Below are positions 7,952 to 15,114 of a DNA stretch of 64,000 nucleotides, piece by piece. Below the pieces are notes generated by a model. The model was given only the letters and a program-made list of their open reading frames with translations, did not search any database and was not told where the DNA came from. Source of the DNA: Pseudomonas sp. B6002 (GTDB lineage Bacteria; Pseudomonadota; Gammaproteobacteria; Pseudomonadales; Pseudomonadaceae); assembly GCF_013385985.1 (NCBI RefSeq), contig NZ_JACAOY010000017.1, positions 62,160-126,159 of the forward strand. Direction: 5' to 3'. How positions within the stretch are numbered: the first letter of the stretch is position 1; each line of letters starts with the position of its first letter. Position numbers and translations under genes: made by a program.

Positions 7952-9481
7952 CTAGGGCGCGGGTGGTATTTGCCACTCGGGCCCTAACGCTGTTAACGGC
8001 AAGTTGTACGAAGCAATCCTGTACAACAGCCGCAGGCCACGGTCCGAGCGTTGTGACAGCTGCGTCAATCGCATGACCCACCTAAGCTGTGCGTGAGACA
8101 CCTTGAGGGTTGTTCCGGATTTCCCCCGGGCCTGGCGCAGTGTCAACAATGCCAGGCCAGTCGCCCACAACAAGAATCGACGAATACCGGCATGTTTGGC
8201 TGGTATGAGCAGGGCGTATTGCAGCGCTCGCTGTAGATGGGAATGGGCAGTGCCAATCAGTTCCTCGATGGTCGGCGACGAGGTGCCGTGTTCGGCGAAC
8301 GGGTCTTGGGGTAACCAGCAGACGCCGCGAATGTGGTCCACCTCCTGATCTTTGAGAATATTCGTCAGCTGCAGCCCTGTGCCGAACGAAACCGCCAGAC
8401 TGCGCAACGTTTCGCGTTGGGCCGCCAGTTCGGGCTCATAGTCGATGAATAGCTCGGTCAGCATTTCTCCCACTACGCCTGCCACGCAATAACAGTAGCG
8501 GTCCAGTTCCTGACGGCTGGCCAAACCCCGCGCGCTGACCTTGCCCTGGAACTCGGCCATACCGCACGTCATGACGGCCAGGCAGTCGATGATGACACTG
8601 CGCTGCGCCGGTTTGAGTGTGCGGTTGACCGTCAATACCCGGGGCATGTGCCTGATCAGTTCGCGTTCGGCCGCAAGCGTCTGCGCTGTCAGGTGCTTGC
8701 TCAGTTCATCGCTAAGGTGTTCGGCGTTCGCCGTGCCGGTGACTGCCTCCAGATAGACTCGTTGGTAATGCTGTTTCTGGGCGAGGGTCAGGCCGGGCTC
8801 ATCTTCGATAGTGTCGGCTATCCGGCAGAGCAGATAGGCATTGGCTACCGCCGAATGCAGTTCGGTGGGCAATTGCGGGATGGTCAACGCGAATGTTCGC
8901 GACACCAGGCGCAGGCTTTCATTCTGAAAGCGCAGAGCATCCTGAAGCCTCCACGCCTGCGCGGACCATTGGTCCAGGCGACTGGCAGGGTCGGCGAGGA
9001 TAATCTTGAACCAGGCGGTAAACCCCTGGGGCTCAGCCATGAGCCATTGTTCCAGCACGGGTAGCTCGATCCAGCACCATTGTGCGGCTTCGTTGGGGTT
9101 GACCAGGGGGGCGTCGTCGAATCCGCCGATGTAGACATGGTTGAACTCATGTTCGATCAATCCATCTGGTACCTCTGTGCGGTAAGTCAGCGTGGTGATT
9201 TGCTGCAGCGGGCAGGTGAAGCCCATCTCTTCGTCAAGCCTACGGATGGCCGCATCGCCAGTAGCCTCGCCGGGGCGTGGGTGGCCGCAACAGGTATTGG
9301 TCCACAAACCGGCGGAATGGTATTTGCCTTGCGCGCGTCGTTGCAGCATCAGCCGCCCGAGCCGGTCGAAGATGAATATGGAAAATGCTCGATGCAGAAG
9401 CCCTTGGCGGTGCACGGACAACTTGTCGTCGGTGCCCGTGGCTTGATCGTTCTGATCAACCAGTATCAGTGACTCTCCCAT
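7952..9481 (-). CDS. Fusion of type I isopentenyl-diphosphate isomerase and squalene/phytoene synthase
   Basis: 509 residues, two enzymes in one chain. Residues 1-170 are a Nudix-type IPP:DMAPP isomerase: TNTCCGHP with the catalytic cysteine (C65), the Nudix-like helix GEATGDAAIRRLDEE and the glutamates E110/E112 in LIEHEFNHVYIG. Residues ~185-509 are a trans head-to-head prenyl synthase of the squalene/phytoene synthase family: SRTFALTIPQLP, first Asp-rich motif DTIED (223-227), YCVAGVVGEM and second motif NILKDQEVD (374-382). It probably isomerises IPP and condenses two farnesyl-PP to squalene or a related product. The ATG is 3 nt after the cyclase stop, with GAGGAG inside the cyclase end, implying translational coupling. 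No hpnC/D/E or FPP synthase genes are nearby. Each domain is certain; the product is inferred. Confidence 0.88.
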   Translation of the reverse strand: MGESLILVDQNDQATGTDDKLSVHRQGLLHRAFSIFIFDRLGRLMLQRRAQGKYHSAGLWTNTCCGHPRPGEATGDAAIRRLDEEMGFTCPLQQITTLTYRTEVPDGLIEHEFNHVYIGGFDDAPLVNPNEAAQWCWIELPVLEQWLMAEPQGFTAWFKIILADPASRLDQWSAQAWRLQDALRFQNESLRLVSRTFALTIPQLPTELHSAVANAYLLCRIADTIEDEPGLTLAQKQHYQRVYLEAVTGTANAEHLSDELSKHLTAQTLAAERELIRHMPRVLTVNRTLKPAQRSVIIDCLAVMTCGMAEFQGKVSARGLASRQELDRYCYCVAGVVGEMLTELFIDYEPELAAQRETLRSLAVSFGTGLQLTNILKDQEVDHIRGVCWLPQDPFAEHGTSSPTIEELIGTAHSHLQRALQYALLIPAKHAGIRRFLLWATGLALLTLRQARGKSGTTLKVSHAQLRWVMRLTQLSQRSDRGLRLLYRIASYNLPLTALGPEWQIPPAP

Positions 9482-9484
9482 GGC

Positions 9485-11395
9485 TCAGTCCTCCTCAATG
9501 GTGAGGTTGCGATAGCGTGCCAAGGCCCATAACGGGAAATACACCGCGTAACCATGGTAATGAAGGTACATCGCGCGAGGGATGCCGGTTCCTGTGGCAT
9601 GGCCGTCAGTCCAAGTGCCGTCGTGGTGTTGTGATTGCTGCAGATAGGCAATGCCTCGCCGGGTTGCCGGATGGTTTACGGCACCGGCGACCATCAGCCC
9701 CAGCAATGCCCACGCCGTTTGCGAGGGGGTACTTTCAGACGGTTGATGCCCCTGGCGTTTCAACGCGTAGCCGCTGGCGTTTTCGCCCCAGCCGCCGTCG
9801 CTGTTCTGGTGCTTTATCAACCACTCGCGTGCCCGCCGGACTGCAGGAAACTGAGGGTCATGACCATTGGTTGCCAGCCCCTCGAGGGCGGACCAGGTGC
9901 CGTAGATAAAATTGATGCCCCATCGACCGTACCAACTGCCGTCGGCCTCTTGTTGCGCCAGCAGGTAATGCAACGCTTTGTCAGTGACATGGCGGGTTGC
10001 CGGCGTGGCCTCCAGTAGCCCAAGCATGCACAGGCAGCGGGCACTGACGTCGGCGCTGGGGAAATCAATCATCAAGCCATGTTCGGCGATGGGAAAACTG
10101 TTGAGGTAATTTTGCGTGTTTTCAGCCTCGTAGGCGCCCCAGCCACCTTGGCGGTTTTGCATGCCCTCTACCCATTCACGGGCCCTGCTGATCGCTTCAC
10201 CGTAGTCTGCGGTGGGATTGGTGCACAGGGCCCGTTGCATGACGGTCGCGACCACGGCGGTGTCGTCGACATCCGGGTGCCTTGGCAGGTTGTATTGAAA
10301 AGCCCAGCCGCCTGGGCGCAGGTCTGGTCGGGTCATGACCCAGTCGCCATAGGTGTCGAGGATTTGTTTGTATCGCAGCCATTTCAGGCCGTGCGAGGCC
10401 GATTCGATTCCGCGTTTTTCACCGGTTTCCAACAAGGCCTGGCACACCCAGGCGGTGTCCCAGATGGGCGATACACACGGTTGGCAGTAAGCGGCTTGCG
10501 GGTGGATGACCAACAGCTTGTCGCGGGCCTTGCGTGCCGTCAGTACCGCCGGATGATCGTCCGGATAGTTCAGCGCCCTGAGCAGGATCACGCTGGCGCC
10601 AATGGTCGGCAGTGTCGCACCATAGCCATCTTCGCCGTTGAGCTGTGCGATGACGCTACTCACCGCACGATCAATCGCTTTTTGTCGCAGACCTTTCGGG
10701 AACCAGGGGGTGCAGCGGTGTAACAGGCGATCAATCCCGCCGAACAGGGCAAACCAGGCCTTATTCTGGTGAGGAGCGCAGCGCAGCGGCCTGGTTTGCT
10801 CGGGCGGCTCCAGGAACAGTTCGGCGATGGAGGTACGTTGAGGGTTGCGCGCGATGGGACGCGACACGTGCAGTACAGAAAATGCCACTGTGTACTTGCG
10901 GGGGAGACAAGCAATCTTCGACAAGTGAAAGGGGAACCAGCGGGGCAGCAGGATCACTTCCACTGGAACCGACGGTAATGCGTGCCAAGGGATAAAGCCG
11001 AACAAGGCCATCCAGATGCGGGTCATCACGTTGCTACCGGCCGCGCCGCCGTGTTGTCGAATCAGTGCACAGGCCCGCTGCAGGGGCTGCTCGTTCTCTG
11101 CACGCCCCAGCAGTTTGAGCGCGAAGTAGGTTTTGACACTGGTACTCAGGTCGAAATGGCCACCCTGAAGCACCGGCCAGCCACCTTCCGGCTGCTGCAG
11201 ATCGCTCATGTAACGCGCGAGCTTGGCCCCGAGGATTGGGTCGATCGGTTCGCCGAGAAAGTGCATCTGTAACACATATTCGGCGGTCATTGCAGCGTCC
11301 GTCTCAAGTTCGAACACCCAATGCCCATCGGGCCGTTGCCGCAAGAGCAAAGCATTCAACGCGTCTTCTATCGCGCATTCCAGACGTGGATTCAT
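9485..11395 (-). CDS. Squalene-hopene-cyclase-family triterpene cyclase
   Basis: A 636-residue class II terpene cyclase of usual SHC length. It has the protonating DVDDTA motif (D375-D378), several QW-type repeats (GGWGAYEAENT, DGSWYGRWG, SDGGWGE) and the STPSQTAWAL stretch. It probably cyclises squalene at the membrane. Several pocket positions differ from my recollection of bacterial HpnF and Alicyclobacillus SHC: M609 where F601 is expected, T261-L262 where I-F or I-Q is usual, and R372-H373 in place of Tyr-Tyr before the DXDD motif. The product may therefore not be hopene. It is the first gene of the operon, with the IDI-squalene synthase fusion directly after it; a perfect palindrome lies 74 nt upstream. 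Confidence 0.9.
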   Translation of the reverse strand: MNPRLECAIEDALNALLLRQRPDGHWVFELETDAAMTAEYVLQMHFLGEPIDPILGAKLARYMSDLQQPEGGWPVLQGGHFDLSTSVKTYFALKLLGRAENEQPLQRACALIRQHGGAAGSNVMTRIWMALFGFIPWHALPSVPVEVILLPRWFPFHLSKIACLPRKYTVAFSVLHVSRPIARNPQRTSIAELFLEPPEQTRPLRCAPHQNKAWFALFGGIDRLLHRCTPWFPKGLRQKAIDRAVSSVIAQLNGEDGYGATLPTIGASVILLRALNYPDDHPAVLTARKARDKLLVIHPQAAYCQPCVSPIWDTAWVCQALLETGEKRGIESASHGLKWLRYKQILDTYGDWVMTRPDLRPGGWAFQYNLPRHPDVDDTAVVATVMQRALCTNPTADYGEAISRAREWVEGMQNRQGGWGAYEAENTQNYLNSFPIAEHGLMIDFPSADVSARCLCMLGLLEATPATRHVTDKALHYLLAQQEADGSWYGRWGINFIYGTWSALEGLATNGHDPQFPAVRRAREWLIKHQNSDGGWGENASGYALKRQGHQPSESTPSQTAWALLGLMVAGAVNHPATRRGIAYLQQSQHHDGTWTDGHATGTGIPRAMYLHYHGYAVYFPLWALARYRNLTIEED

Positions 11396-11468: not shown

Positions 11469-11486
11469 ACTGTCATAAATGACAGT
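11469..11486. promoter_or_regulatory. 18-bp perfect palindrome upstream of the triterpene operon
   Basis: ACTGTCAT-AA-ATGACAGT, an 8-2-8 perfect inverted repeat between the cyclase gene and the LysR gene, both on the minus strand. Beside it is a second repeat, GGTGACC-GAA-GGTCACC (11487-11503), which overlaps the LysR stop codon. The first could be an operator for the triterpene operon. Together they could instead form a weak terminator for the LysR gene, though no T-tract follows. Confidence 0.4.
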
Positions 11487-11498
11487 GGTGACCGAAGG

Positions 11499-12383
11499 TC
11501 ACCGGGGCAGTTGTTCCTTGAGCAATTCAAAACAGCGCTGTGCGGCCGGGCTCAATAGGTGCCCGGTACGGACGATCAGCCCTATCTCGCGATTGACCCG
11601 CGGGTGTTTGATCGCGATCCGTCGCAACCCTTCCAGGCTGTCCGCCGCCGACTCCGGCAGTACGCTGATCCCCAATCCCTGACGCACCAGGGCCAACACC
11701 GTCGACATGTAGTTGGCTTCCATGCCTGCATTCATCGTCAACCGCGTCTCATCGAACAACCCGTCCACCTGCTCACGCACGCTGCTGTCGCGCCCGGTCA
11801 GGATGATCGGCTGGTCCGCCAGTTGCTCAAGGGTCAGTTGGCGGTGGCGGGTGAGGGGGTGGTCCTCAGGCACAAATGCACACAGGCGATCATTGAGCAC
11901 CGGCACGAACTCCAGGCCGTGGCTGAGCCGTGCGCGCACGCCAATGCCGAAATCCACTTCGCCGGACCGCACCTGGGCGTGAATGCGGTGTGCCACCAGG
12001 TCATGCAGGCGCACTTCGATCCCGGCAAAACGCTCGCGGAACAGGCGCAGCGCGGGTGGCAAGGTGCCGGCGCACACCGAGGGCAGGGCGGCAATGGTGA
12101 CCACGCCTCGGCGCAAGGCGGCGAGGTCGCGGGAGCCGGTAACGATGTTGTCCAGGTCCAGCAGCAGTTTTTCCATGGGCCCACGGGCGTCCAGGCCAGC
12201 GGCGGTGATGCTGACATGGCGCGGGCTGCGGTCGAGCAGGGCAACGCCGAGCCAGTCTTCCAGCTGTTGCACCTGCACGGTCAGCGCCGAAGGTGACAGG
12301 TGCAGTTCGTTGGCGGCCTTGGTGAAACTGCCCGTACGGGCTACGGCTAGGAACGCTTGAATGTGTTGGATGCTGTTCTTCAT
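11499..12383 (-). CDS. LysR-family transcriptional regulator
   Basis: A 294-residue LysR regulator. The N-terminal HTH (FLAVARTGSFTKAANELHLSP) is followed by an effector-binding domain with the typical GLGISVLPESAA stretch. It is divergent from the CitMHS/AtuA operon with a 111-nt shared promoter, the classic layout for a LysR activator of its neighbour. The inducer is unknown. The open frame continues far upstream, but residues beyond 12383 are the antisense of the transporter, so the start is MKNSIQ at 12383. Confidence 0.9.
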   Translation of the reverse strand: MKNSIQHIQAFLAVARTGSFTKAANELHLSPSALTVQVQQLEDWLGVALLDRSPRHVSITAAGLDARGPMEKLLLDLDNIVTGSRDLAALRRGVVTIAALPSVCAGTLPPALRLFRERFAGIEVRLHDLVAHRIHAQVRSGEVDFGIGVRARLSHGLEFVPVLNDRLCAFVPEDHPLTRHRQLTLEQLADQPIILTGRDSSVREQVDGLFDETRLTMNAGMEANYMSTVLALVRQGLGISVLPESAADSLEGLRRIAIKHPRVNREIGLIVRTGHLLSPAAQRCFELLKEQLPR

Positions 12384-12494
12384 TTTGTTTTTCCGAACAC
12401 TAGGCTGTGAATATTCCAATTTACAAAGACTAACCCGCTTCCAATACTCCAGGGAAAACAATAACCGGCCACCAAGGCCGCTCTGGAGTACCCC

Positions 12495-13787
12495 ATGCTC
12501 GCAACCCTGGGTGTCATCACCATCCTGTGCCTGCTCGCTGCCGTCATGAGCAAACGCCTCTCGCCCCTGGTGGCCCTGATCGCCTTGCCGATCATTGCCG
12601 CGCTGCTCGGCGGTTTTGGCCTGCAAACCAGCGCCTTCATCATTACCGGTATCAAGAACGTCGCCCCCGTGGTGGGCATGTTCGTGTTTGCCATCCTGTT
12701 TTTCGGGATCATGACCGATGCCGGCATGCTTGACCCCATCATTGATCGCATCCTGCGCACGGTAGGGACGCGTCCTACACGAATTGTCGTAGGCACCGCG
12801 ACCCTGGCGTTGCTGGTGCACCTGGACGGTTCCGGCGCAGTGACCTTCCTGGTCACGGTGCCGGCAATGTTGCCGCTGTATACGCGGCTGGGCATCGACA
12901 AACGTATCCTCGCCTGTGTGTGTGCGATGGCGGCCGGGGTCAACTTCCTGCCGTGGACCGGCCCGGTGCTGCGCTCTTCGGCGGCCCTGCATGTGCCGGT
13001 GGCTGACTTGTTCCAGCCGTTGATTCCGGTGCAGATCGTCGGGCTGATCTTCGTTTTTGCCTGCGCCTGGTGGCTGGGGCGTCGTGAGGAAAAACGCCTG
13101 GGTCTGGGGGCCGGATCCTCGGTGGACGCGGTGCCACAACGGGTGCTCAGCGACGATGAAATCAAGCTGCGCCGCCCGCGCCTGTTCTGGGTCAACCTGG
13201 TGCTGACCGTGCTGGTGATGGTGGTGATGATCGCTGGCTGGGTCGATCCGGTGGTGATGTTCATGCTCGGCACCGTGGTGGCGCTGTGCATCAACTACCC
13301 GAACGTGGACGCCCAGCGTGCACGTATCGACGCCCATGCGAAAACCGCCCTGACCATGGCCAGTATCCTGCTCGCTGCCGGCGTGTTCACCGGCATCATG
13401 CAGGGCACCGGCATGCTCAAGGCGATTGCCGAAGTGGCGGTGGCGCAGATCCCGGCCGGCCATGGCAAGTTGATCCCGGCGGTGGTGGGTTTTATTTCCA
13501 TGCCGCTGAGCATGCTGTTCGATCCCGATTCCTACTATTTCGGCGTGATGCCGGTGATTGCCGAAGTGGGCAAGGCCCTTGGCGTCGACCCGTTGCAAGT
13601 GGCCCAGGCCTCTTTGCTGGGCGTGCACACCACCGGTTTCCCGGTCAGCCCGCTGACCCCCGCGACCTTCCTGTTGGTGGGCCTGTGCAAGATCGAATTG
13701 GCCGATCACCAGCGCTTCACCATTCCGTTTCTGTTTGCCGCGTCGGTGTTGATGACCCTGACCGCGTTGCTCCTGGGAGTGATTTGA
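12495..13787 (+). CDS. CitMHS-family citrate/metal-H+ symporter-like transporter
   Basis: A 430-residue inner-membrane protein with about twelve hydrophobic segments. CitMHS members carry citrate or related tricarboxylates with Mg2+ or Ca2+. Family-like stretches are LVHLDGSGAVTFLVTVPAM and FDPDSYYFGVMPV. The RBS is in CTGGAG just before the ATG. Its stop is 1 nt from the AtuA-like gene, and a LysR gene is divergent, so the three-gene operon probably takes up and breaks down an organic acid. The actual substrate is not evident. Confidence 0.85.
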   Translation: MLATLGVITILCLLAAVMSKRLSPLVALIALPIIAALLGGFGLQTSAFIITGIKNVAPVVGMFVFAILFFGIMTDAGMLDPIIDRILRTVGTRPTRIVVGTATLALLVHLDGSGAVTFLVTVPAMLPLYTRLGIDKRILACVCAMAAGVNFLPWTGPVLRSSAALHVPVADLFQPLIPVQIVGLIFVFACAWWLGRREEKRLGLGAGSSVDAVPQRVLSDDEIKLRRPRLFWVNLVLTVLVMVVMIAGWVDPVVMFMLGTVVALCINYPNVDAQRARIDAHAKTALTMASILLAAGVFTGIMQGTGMLKAIAEVAVAQIPAGHGKLIPAVVGFISMPLSMLFDPDSYYFGVMPVIAEVGKALGVDPLQVAQASLLGVHTTGFPVSPLTPATFLLVGLCKIELADHQRFTIPFLFAASVLMTLTALLLGVI

Positions 13788-13788
13788 C

Positions 13789-15114
13789 ATGAAAACCTTG
13801 CGCATCGGTTCCGGCGCCGGCTATTCCGGCGACCGTATCGAGCCCGCCGTGGAACTGGCCGAGCAGGGCGACCTGGATTACCTGGTGTTCGAATGCCTGG
13901 CCGAACGCACCATTGCGTTGGCGCAACAGGCGCGGATCAACGACCCAGCGGGCGGTTACGACCCGCTGCTGAGTGAACGCATGCGCCGCGTACTGCCCTT
14001 TGTCGGCATGAAGGCAGGGCGCCGACGCTTGCGGGTGATCACCAATATGGGCGCGGCCAACCCGGTGGCGGCAGCCGATGAAGTGCGGCGGATTGCGGCT
14101 GCGCTAGGCCTGGTTCTCAAAGTAGTTGCCGTGGTCGGCGATGACGTATTGCAGGTCTTGCAACCCGAGTTTTTGCTGGATAACGGCCAGACCGTCGGCT
14201 CCTTGGGTGAGCGGCTACTTTCGGCGAACGCCTACCTGGGCGTCGACGGCATTCTGCAGGCGTTGCACGCTGACGCAGACGTGGTGATCACCGGTCGCGT
14301 GGCTGACCCTTCGCTGTTCCTGGCGCCGCAGATGTTTGAATTCGGCTGGGCGCAGGACAATTGGCAGCGCCTGGGGGGCGGTACGCTGGTGGGGCATTTG
14401 CTTGAGTGTGCCGGGCAGGTGAGTGGTGGCTACTTTGCTGACCCGGGTTTGAAGGATGTGGATGACCTGGCGCGCCTGGGTTTTCCGTTGGCCGAGATCA
14501 CTGCAGACGGTGAAGCCTTGATCACCAAGGTCAGCGGTTCAGGTGGTCGCGTCAGCCGCGCTACGTGTACCGAGCAATTGATCTACGAGGTGCACGACCC
14601 GGCGGCCTACCTGACGCCGGATGTGACGGCCGATTTTTCCCAGGTCGGGTTTGTTGAAGAAAGCGTTGATCGGGTGCGTGCCCAGGGCGCGGGCGGCCGT
14701 GCGCGGCCCGAGCAGTTGAAGGTCAGTGTCGGTTATCTGGACGGTTGGATTGGCGAGGGGCAGATGTCGTACGGCGGGCCTGGCGCTGTGGCACGGGCCC
14801 AACTGGCGCGGGATGTGGTGCTCAAGCGCCTGGAATTGATGGGTGTGAAGATGCTGGACGTGCGCGCCGAACTGATTGGCATGGACTCGCTGCACGGCCC
14901 GCGCAGCAGCGTCGAGCCCTGGGAAGTGCGCTTGCGCGTGGCAGCCCGTTGCGAAGAACGCAGCGAGGCGGTGCGGGTCGGCAATGAGGTGGAAACCCTC
15001 TACACCAACGGCCCGTCGGGTGGCGGTGGGGCGAGTAAAAGCGTGCGGCAGGTGGTGGCGGTGGCGTCGTTGCTGCTGCCGCGCGATAAGGTCAACCCGA
15101 GGATTCAAGCATGA
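13789..15114 (+). CDS. AtuA-family protein (DUF1446), large part
   Basis: 441 residues. It starts with the family signature MKTLRIGSGAGYSGDRIEPA, followed by the conserved DYLVFECLAERT and VVITGRVADPSLFL. AtuA was named from acyclic terpene utilisation in P. aeruginosa, but DUF1446 proteins occur in other acyl-CoA or acid pathways and their reaction is not established. The ATG is 1 nt after the transporter stop, and the last codons overlap the next gene in ATGA. The short C-terminal AtuA domain is encoded separately by that next gene. I would not infer terpene catabolism from the name. Confidence 0.85.
   Translation: MKTLRIGSGAGYSGDRIEPAVELAEQGDLDYLVFECLAERTIALAQQARINDPAGGYDPLLSERMRRVLPFVGMKAGRRRLRVITNMGAANPVAAADEVRRIAAALGLVLKVVAVVGDDVLQVLQPEFLLDNGQTVGSLGERLLSANAYLGVDGILQALHADADVVITGRVADPSLFLAPQMFEFGWAQDNWQRLGGGTLVGHLLECAGQVSGGYFADPGLKDVDDLARLGFPLAEITADGEALITKVSGSGGRVSRATCTEQLIYEVHDPAAYLTPDVTADFSQVGFVEESVDRVRAQGAGGRARPEQLKVSVGYLDGWIGEGQMSYGGPGAVARAQLARDVVLKRLELMGVKMLDVRAELIGMDSLHGPRSSVEPWEVRLRVAARCEERSEAVRVGNEVETLYTNGPSGGGGASKSVRQVVAVASLLLPRDKVNPRIQA

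What the first reader, a model, noticed from the sequence alone, without database searches (positions are those of the whole stretch)
7952..11395. Two-gene triterpene operon with an isopentenyl-diphosphate isomerase fused to squalene/phytoene synthase
One chain carries an intact type I IDI (TNTCCGHP, EHE) and an intact squalene/phytoene synthase (DTIED, NILKDQEVD), translationally coupled to a squalene-hopene-type cyclase. I know of no standard hopanoid cluster with this fusion: those use hpnC/D/E or a stand-alone synthase, and many pseudomonads lack IDI and hopanoids. The operon is self-contained from IPP handling to cyclisation except for FPP synthase.
Basis: partly seen in the sequence, partly recalled or inferred. 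Interest (0 to 1): 0.8.

Follow-up and report, generated by a model that had tools for sequence, protein, structure and literature searches.

The report
Bacterial isomerase–squalene synthase fusion operon
A Pseudomonas carries a two-gene operon in which one protein joins the enzyme that balances the two C5 isoprene units to the enzyme that makes squalene, next to a cyclase whose active site has been rebuilt, so the product is probably an unusual triterpene and not an ordinary bacterial hopanoid.

Summary
In detail: 7952-9481(-) encodes one 509-aa chain with a type I IDI and a squalene synthase (SQS) domain, three bases downstream of a squalene-hopene-family cyclase. The fusion was found in 4 of 399 sampled genomes of the genus and in none of 273 others of the class. 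Both domains are under purifying selection.

Three corrections. (1) IDI-SQS fusions are known from diatoms and other algae; here both halves group with bacterial enzymes, so this one looks independent. (2) IDI is optional: it was lost at least twice (P. viridiflava; G100/dw_612) while the synthase stayed open. The same IDI clade is fused to terpene synthases in at least 14 of 399 genomes. (3) The cyclase is probably not a hopene synthase: W169, I261, F601 and F/Y605, constant in the 89 other SHC-type rows compared (G037 apart), are replaced in all four operon cyclases, and no HpnH passes cut-off.

Best reading: a squalene-supply module feeding a cyclase with a non-hopene product. In G186 a related fusion sits in a sterol-type gene set.

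The parts
9485..11395 (-). cyclase of the squalene-hopene cyclase family, 636 aa, DVDD acid motif intact (residues 375-378)
   Evidence: PF13249/PF13243 and TIGR01507 633.7 bits over cut-off 431.1; 1gsz best solved relative; residue audit
7952..9481 (-). IDI-squalene synthase fusion, 509 aa
   Evidence: full-length homologues; model matches human SQS and E. coli IDI
8981..9475 (-). type I IDI domain, residues 3-167
   Evidence: NF002995 164.6 bits (cut-off 127) and TIGR02150 127 bits (cut-off 105.8)
8105..8911 (-). squalene synthase domain, residues 191-459 (PF00494 match; the predicted helices run on to about residue 500)
   Evidence: PF00494 144.4 bits; Foldseek best hit 3wej human SQS, E 1.7e-11; model
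9490..9496 (-). Shine-Dalgarno-like GAGGAGG inside the cyclase 3' end, upstream of the fusion ATG
   Evidence: sequence; inference
11469..11486 (-). palindromic element ACTGTCATTTATGACAGT upstream of the cyclase; candidate operator
   Evidence: core CTGTNATTTNTGACAGT also just upstream of the aligned cyclase start in P. viridiflava and both P. frederiksbergensis operons; 0 of 100 shuffles of the window hold the core; 2 matches of the 18-base pattern in the whole genome. The pattern was written after seeing the four sequences.

Best explanation
The operon makes and cyclises squalene. The IDI half of the fusion turns IPP into DMAPP, so that the cell's FPP synthase is not short of its starter; the SQS half condenses two FPP, through presqualene diphosphate and with NADPH, to squalene; the co-translated cyclase protonates squalene with its DVDD motif and cyclises it. 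Because the cyclase has lost aromatic residues of the late cyclisation pocket, the product is most likely a triterpene other than hopene or diplopterol, perhaps stopped at fewer rings. The fusion arose inside Pseudomonas from a local terpenoid IDI and a gammaproteobacterial one-enzyme SQS, separately from the algal fusion; IDI is a flux booster that lineages can lose. Shown: fusion, domains, gene order, distribution, trees, purifying selection, active-site replacements. Inferred: all catalysis, the flux role, the product.
For: Both domains at family level and in the model. One-enzyme SQS: SR[TS]F and paired DxxxD motifs aligned with eukaryotic SQS, the model nearer human SQS than CrtM, and no second PF00494 match in the genome that could act as HpnC/HpnD. 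Purifying selection: dN/dS 0.096 (IDI) and 0.157 (SQS) between the two P. frederiksbergensis strains at unsaturated dS; 0.15-0.23 for SQS and 0.16-0.20 for IDI in the window comparisons that could be computed. IDI as booster: terpene synthase PF19086 in 36 of 48 genomes with IDI against 17 of 351 without; same IDI clade fused to terpene synthases in at least 14 genomes and beside DXS in others. IDI lost while SQS stays open, at least twice. Product: 169, 261, 601 and 605 replaced in 4 of 4 operon cyclases and constant in all SHC-type rows with data (88, 88, 89 and 89); changes at F601/F605 and at I261 alter which rings the A. acidocaldarius enzyme forms from geranylgeraniol (passages of PMC11165016); HpnH over cut-off in 0 of 7 Pseudomonas G-genomes tested and not in P. 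sivasensis, but in 3 of 3 canonical genomes.
Against: No biochemistry or lipid data. The cyclase still passes TIGR01507 easily and keeps W312, F365, Y420, W489, Y609 and Y612. The window SQS has V in an otherwise acidic motif position and fails the equivalog cut-off of TIGR01559, 86.1 against 286.75 bits. P. sivasensis P7 keeps an intact fusion with only a cyclase remnant, so the fusion need not feed this cyclase. Many dS values are saturated. 8 of the 48 IDI genomes have neither terpene synthase nor this SQS.
Confidence: 0.58

Rival explanations
1. Ordinary minimal hopanoid operon: the cyclase makes diploptene/diplopterol in spite of its replacements and the cell simply lacks side-chain tailoring.
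For: TIGR01507 and PF13243/PF13249 over cut-off; DVDD, W312, F365, Y420, W489, Y609 and Y612 kept in the window protein.
Against: Four positions constant in the 89 other SHC-type rows are changed in all four operon cyclases; separate deep clade, SH-aLRT 99; no HpnH over cut-off in carriers.
Confidence: 0.25
2. The IDI half is a passenger of a chance gene fusion with no benefit to flux.
For: It was lost in frame at least twice while SQS stayed open; MEP-pathway bacteria can live without IDI (recalled).
Against: Catalytic residues kept and dN/dS 0.084-0.197 in the 7 of 10 IDI comparisons that could be computed; IDI strongly associated with terpenoid genes in the genus; same IDI clade fused to two other synthase types.
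Confidence: 0.2
3. The SQS half stops at presqualene diphosphate or makes a dehydrosqualene, and another enzyme finishes.
For: Below the TIGR01559 cut-off; partial HpnD and CrtB similarity. HpnE was not searched for.
Against: Fold and N-terminal motif nearest to eukaryotic SQS; no other PF00494 match in the genome.
Confidence: 0.12
4. The cyclase takes a substrate other than squalene (oxidosqualene or a prenylated aromatic).
For: Rebuilt pocket; the fusion persists without the cyclase in P. sivasensis P7.
Against: In three of the four operons the cyclase is paired with the intact fusion, and in the fourth with its SQS half; the window operon has only these two genes.
Confidence: 0.12
5. The fusion came from algae by horizontal transfer.
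For: Same architecture in diatoms.
Against: SQS half nests among gammaproteobacterial SQS (100/99) and IDI half among Pseudomonas IDI (100/100); algal sequences could not be placed in these trees.
Confidence: 0.02

Closest known systems
Algal IDI-SQS fusion (PtIDISQS, Phatr3_EG02290, of Phaeodactylum tricornutum; other diatoms, haptophytes, heterokonts)
   Same: One chain with IDI and squalene synthase; feeds cyclic triterpenoids (passages of PMC12168105, PMC9033121, PMC6330534).
   Different: The algal version feeds sterols through oxidosqualene cyclase; the bacterial halves group with bacterial enzymes and the operon partner is an SHC-family cyclase. The domain order of the algal protein was not seen in a passage.
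Gammaproteobacterial SQS-SHC loci (Dyella, Azotobacter, Rhodanobacter)
   Same: Same SQS family, 45-54% identical in the best segment; SHC follows SQS on the same strand in 50 of the 69 non-Pseudomonas loci (some loci end early).
   Different: Order SQS then SHC; SQS not fused to IDI; canonical SHC pocket; HpnH over cut-off in the three such genomes tested: Dyella, Azomonas, one MAG.
Pseudomonas IDI-terpene synthase fusions (L043, L044, L046 and 11 more)
   Same: Same IDI clade at the N-terminus of a prenyl-diphosphate-consuming enzyme.
   Different: C-terminal half is a class I terpene synthase (PF19086 in the three scanned; the rest by blastp), not SQS.
Squalene-hopene cyclase of Alicyclobacillus acidocaldarius (1gsz)
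   Same: Full-length homologue, E 6.5e-116, DxDD kept.
   Different: W169, I261, F601 and F605 are L, T, I and M in the window protein.

Membership tests
Type I isopentenyl-diphosphate isomerase | NCBIfam equivalog cut-offs | tested here: met
   164.6/127 and 127/105.8 bits
Type I isopentenyl-diphosphate isomerase | Cys/Glu catalytic pair and metal-binding His/Glu (positions recalled) | tested here: met
   C65, E112; H24, H30, H67, E110 by alignment with E. coli IDI
Type I isopentenyl-diphosphate isomerase | Isomerase activity | not testable with these tools
   needs assay
One-enzyme (eukaryotic-type) squalene synthase | SQS_PSY domain with two DxxxD motifs and SRxF | tested here: met
   V at one usually acidic position of motif 2
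One-enzyme (eukaryotic-type) squalene synthase | TIGR01559 equivalog cut-off 286.75 bits | tested here: not met
   86.1 bits; so filed as SQS_PSY family, SQS-like, not as that equivalog
HpnC/HpnD of the HpnCDE route | TIGR03464/TIGR03465 cut-offs | tested here: not met
   39.7/250.45 and 63.8/278.6 bits
Squalene-hopene cyclase | TIGR01507 cut-off and DxDD | tested here: met
   633.7/431.1 bits, DVDD
Squalene-hopene cyclase | Pocket residues W169, I261, F601, F/Y605, constant in the compared set | tested here: not met
   L, T, I, M in the window protein; all other SHC-type rows with data keep them, G037 left out
Extended hopanoid cluster | HpnH (TIGR03470) | tested here: not met
   no match over cut-off in the own genome, against 3 of 3 canonical genomes
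Algal IDI-SQS fusion lineage | Common descent with the algal fusion | tested here: inconclusive
   both halves group with bacterial enzymes, but no algal sequence was available

The most novel reading that the evidence does not exclude
Pseudomonads have evolved, independently of algae, a plug-in squalene factory (an IDI-SQS fusion) that has been joined to different cyclisation endings: a new clade of SHC-derived cyclases with a rebuilt pocket that makes a non-hopanoid triterpene (window), and, in genome G186, a sterol-type set of epoxidase, oxidosqualene cyclase, CYP51 and sterol methyltransferase. More broadly, N-terminal fusion of IDI to the enzyme that commits prenyl diphosphates is a recurrent Pseudomonas solution to DMAPP shortage.
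Probability: 0.45. Interest if true: 0.76.

Novelty: new variant of a known kind. Interest (0 to 1): 0.6.

Why it matters
If right, the same enzyme fusion arose separately in algae and in bacteria, which argues that putting IDI on the squalene-committing enzyme gives a real advantage. The genus offers natural deletions of each part (IDI gone, cyclase gone) to test this. The cyclase clade is a candidate source of new triterpene skeletons, and a sterol-type gene set in a Pseudomonas would matter for sterol evolution and biomarkers.

Tried and rejected
Assembly or frame error at the junction: rejected, since other separately assembled genomes carry the full-length fusion. Wide distribution on plasmids: no plasmid record covers 80% of the protein. 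Fusion outside Pseudomonas: none of the matches (E <= 1e-25) in 273 other genomes of the class spans both domains; two IDI matches (G453, G592) run past residue 200 only through stop codons. Spurious neighbour: the 768-aa ORF 11499-13805(-) overlaps a transporter-like gene on the other strand and holds a LysR-like gene only at its end (by eye); not counted as part. The IDI half of the model has low confidence (most 10-residue blocks under 70, since only four rows cover it), so it was not used for residue claims. One origin of the fused IDI rows is neither shown nor rejected (p-AU 0.297). G+C of the operon (0.597 against 0.614) is not unusual (40 of 243 window positions are lower). Position 262 of the cyclase was first counted as constant (79 of 79 rows); the 11 lower-ranking cyclases fetched afterwards vary there, so I dropped it. 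The palindrome is not tied to a regulator: its second copy in the genome has no ORF of 150 aa or more nearer than about 490 bases, and a copy in L157 is unexplained. Literature: ten searches showed no bacterial IDI-SQS fusion, IDI-terpene synthase fusion or Pseudomonas sterol cluster in the titles and abstract starts listed; only open-licence papers are held. Passages only were read in six papers; in PMC13277303 the two Pseudomonas mentions concern ketosteroid isomerase.
Full report
What is there. On the minus strand, 9485-11395 encodes a 636-aa cyclase and 7952-9481 a 509-aa protein whose first third is a type I IDI and whose rest is a squalene/phytoene synthase. The cyclase stop (9487-9485) is followed by three bases and the fusion ATG (9481); GAGGAGG lies at 9490-9496. 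The AlphaFold model (mean pLDDT 78) is confident for the synthase half and poor for the IDI half, which only four rows cover; Foldseek finds human squalene synthase first (3wej, E 1.7e-11, 23% identity) and E. coli IDI further down (1nfs, E 6e-6). The own genome has no other SQS/PSY match, no second good type I IDI match (only one of 32% over residues 4-88), no type II IDI over cut-off, and two polyprenyl synthases that can supply FPP.

Is the fusion real and where. In 399 genomes of the genus (own included; at most 3 candidates per genome scored), 4 have a match over the whole protein: G000, G053 and G328 (P. frederiksbergensis 39A2 and 38F7; contig lengths equal those of L051 and L052), and G186. 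The scan of named genomes kept 80 loci; 3 are fused: L051, L052 and P. sivasensis P7 (L105); none of the 69 loci from outside Pseudomonas is. In 274 genomes of the class (own included) no other match spans both domains.

Selection. Nei-Gojobori dN/dS between the two P. frederiksbergensis strains is 0.096 (IDI), 0.157 (SQS) and 0.264 (cyclase); window against those strains and P. sivasensis gives 0.159-0.197 (IDI) and 0.145-0.159 (SQS), against the P. viridiflava SQS 0.234 and the G100 SQS 0.15; window against G186 could not be computed because dS was saturated. Most of these dS values are near or above 1, so the ratios are rough.

History. In the SQS tree (72 rows; loci L106-L128 and second copies were left out to keep it small) the five fused rows, three rows with the IDI deleted and one further SQS (L037) form a clade (100/99). 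The window groups with IDI-less P. viridiflava p11.D4 (97/77) inside a clade with P. sivasensis (100/94); IDI-less dw_612 and G100 sit inside the P. frederiksbergensis clade (100/99). The IDI-less P. viridiflava and G100 proteins still begin with the first residues of IDI, so they look like in-frame deletions. The cyclase is missing in P. sivasensis P7 and G100, but remnants of its last residues lie just upstream of the synthase gene. Window, P. viridiflava and P. sivasensis share one site (LysR and transporter on one side, aminotransferase on the other), while P. frederiksbergensis and G100 share another, between glmU-like and glmS-like genes (names by eye and size). The element ACTGTNATTTNTGACAGT goes with the cyclase at both sites.

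IDI as a terpenoid gene. In the IDI tree (47 rows; three long-branched rows of a first tree were dropped) the fused IDIs lie in a 37-row clade of Pseudomonas IDIs (100/100), apart from ten IDIs of Azotobacter, Azomonas, other gammaproteobacteria and two Pseudomonas; with three stand-alone IDIs they form an 8-row clade (100/95). The same 37-row clade contains 14 IDIs fused to class I terpene synthases. Terpene synthase PF19086 occurs in 36 of 48 genomes with IDI and 17 of 351 without (Fisher p about 6e-28, not corrected for relatedness); 8 of 48 have neither terpene synthase nor this SQS.

The cyclase. The four operon cyclases form one clade (SH-aLRT 99; quick tree; the joining of G037 to it involves long branches). 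I compared 90 other rows (88 distinct sequences): the SHCs of at least 560 aligned residues in the fetched loci, and all 40 non-own class matches, 11 of them fetched late. One row (L222) is oxidosqualene-type (V-D-C in the acid motif) and one (L219) is partial. In the 89 SHC-type rows W169 is kept in 88 of 88, I261 in 88 of 88, F601 in 89 of 89 and F/Y605 in 89 of 89; the operon cyclases have L or I, T or A, I or V, M or L. The G037 cyclase (W, L, V, M at these four positions) was left out of the count because it may share the change. DxDD is kept in all four; P. viridiflava has further changes at 312, 365 and 420. Passages of PMC11165016 say that changes at F601 and F605 helped tricyclisation of geranylgeraniol, and changes at I261, G600 and L607 favoured bicyclisation, in the A. 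acidocaldarius enzyme. HpnH is over cut-off in none of the seven Pseudomonas G-genomes tested nor in P. sivasensis, but in the Dyella, Azomonas and MAG genomes. Hence a C30 product without the HpnH step, probably not hopene.

G186. Its fusion (601 aa) is on a 58-kb contig with a LasC/MonCI-like flavin epoxidase, a P450 whose best solved relatives are CYP51, an oxidosqualene-cyclase-like protein (TIGR01787 412.7 over 322.7; TIGR03463 727.6, under its cut-off of 851; VSDC in place of DVDD), a methyltransferase with the sterol methyltransferase C-terminal domain, transposase pieces and a TraG gene. This looks like a sterol-type set near mobile DNA; contamination is not excluded.

Precedent. Passages seen: PMC9033121 (SQS-IDI fusions in diatoms, some haptophyte and heterokontophyte algae, proposed multifunctional), PMC12168105 (PtIDISQS forms squalene via presqualene diphosphate, citing Fabris 2014), PMC6723447 (most diatoms), PMC6330534 (Phatr3_EG02290). 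So the architecture is known; the bacterial occurrence was not seen in the listings of the ten searches made.

Verdict. A real, selected, patchily lost bacterial IDI-SQS fusion with an altered SHC-family cyclase: new variant of a known kind.

Noticed in passing
L159 (G186:C21:20000-39999): 1639-3444-, 4887-6602-, 9224-10570+, 12475-13521-, 13900-15918-: Sterol-type gene set in a Pseudomonas genome (IDI-SQS fusion, LasC-like epoxidase, CYP51-like P450, sterol methyltransferase domain, oxidosqualene cyclase) among transposase and conjugation genes.
   Followed up: partly
L043, L044, L045, L046, L143, L145, L146, L147, L149-L154: IDI fused N-terminally to class I terpene synthases of two dissimilar types in at least 14 of 399 Pseudomonas genomes.
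   Followed up: partly
G495:C186, G430:C28, G498:C22, G619:C38: IDI matches in long frames (510-635 aa) in other genomes of the class; what the rest of those frames encodes was not looked at.
   Followed up: no
L109:7830-11033+; also G536:C23 (1077-aa frame): SQS and squalene-hopene cyclase apparently fused in one 1067-aa frame in a Nevskiaceae MAG; a similar long SQS frame in G536.
   Followed up: no
L038-L042: Other Pseudomonas SQS genes without fused IDI: DUF3142 gene next to SQS in L040 and L042, large proteins with weak TPR or HEAT matches below cut-off in L038-L040 and L042, an AcrB-family pump in L038 and an efflux outer-membrane protein in L040; G037 (L042) also has SHC, IDI, a prenyl synthase and a DXS copy.
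   Followed up: partly
L162 (G000:C45): 7515-9254- and 9229-10299+: Own genome carries a weak cyclase-repeat protein (579-aa frame) beside a class I terpene synthase; weak cyclase-repeat and PF19086 matches lie close together also in G037, G067, G234 and G395.
   Followed up: no
window 11469-11486: Palindrome ACTGTCATTTATGACAGT upstream of the cyclase; its core is kept in four operons at two genomic sites.
   Followed up: partly
L035:10663-12678- (P. viridiflava p11.D4): Cyclase with further replacements at W312, F365 and Y420, in the strain whose synthase lost the IDI domain; could be decay or a new activity.
   Followed up: no
L037:10073-14017- (Pseudomonas sp. PB106 / G294): LRR-NEL domain protein, effector-like by Pfam, next to the SQS gene.
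   Followed up: no
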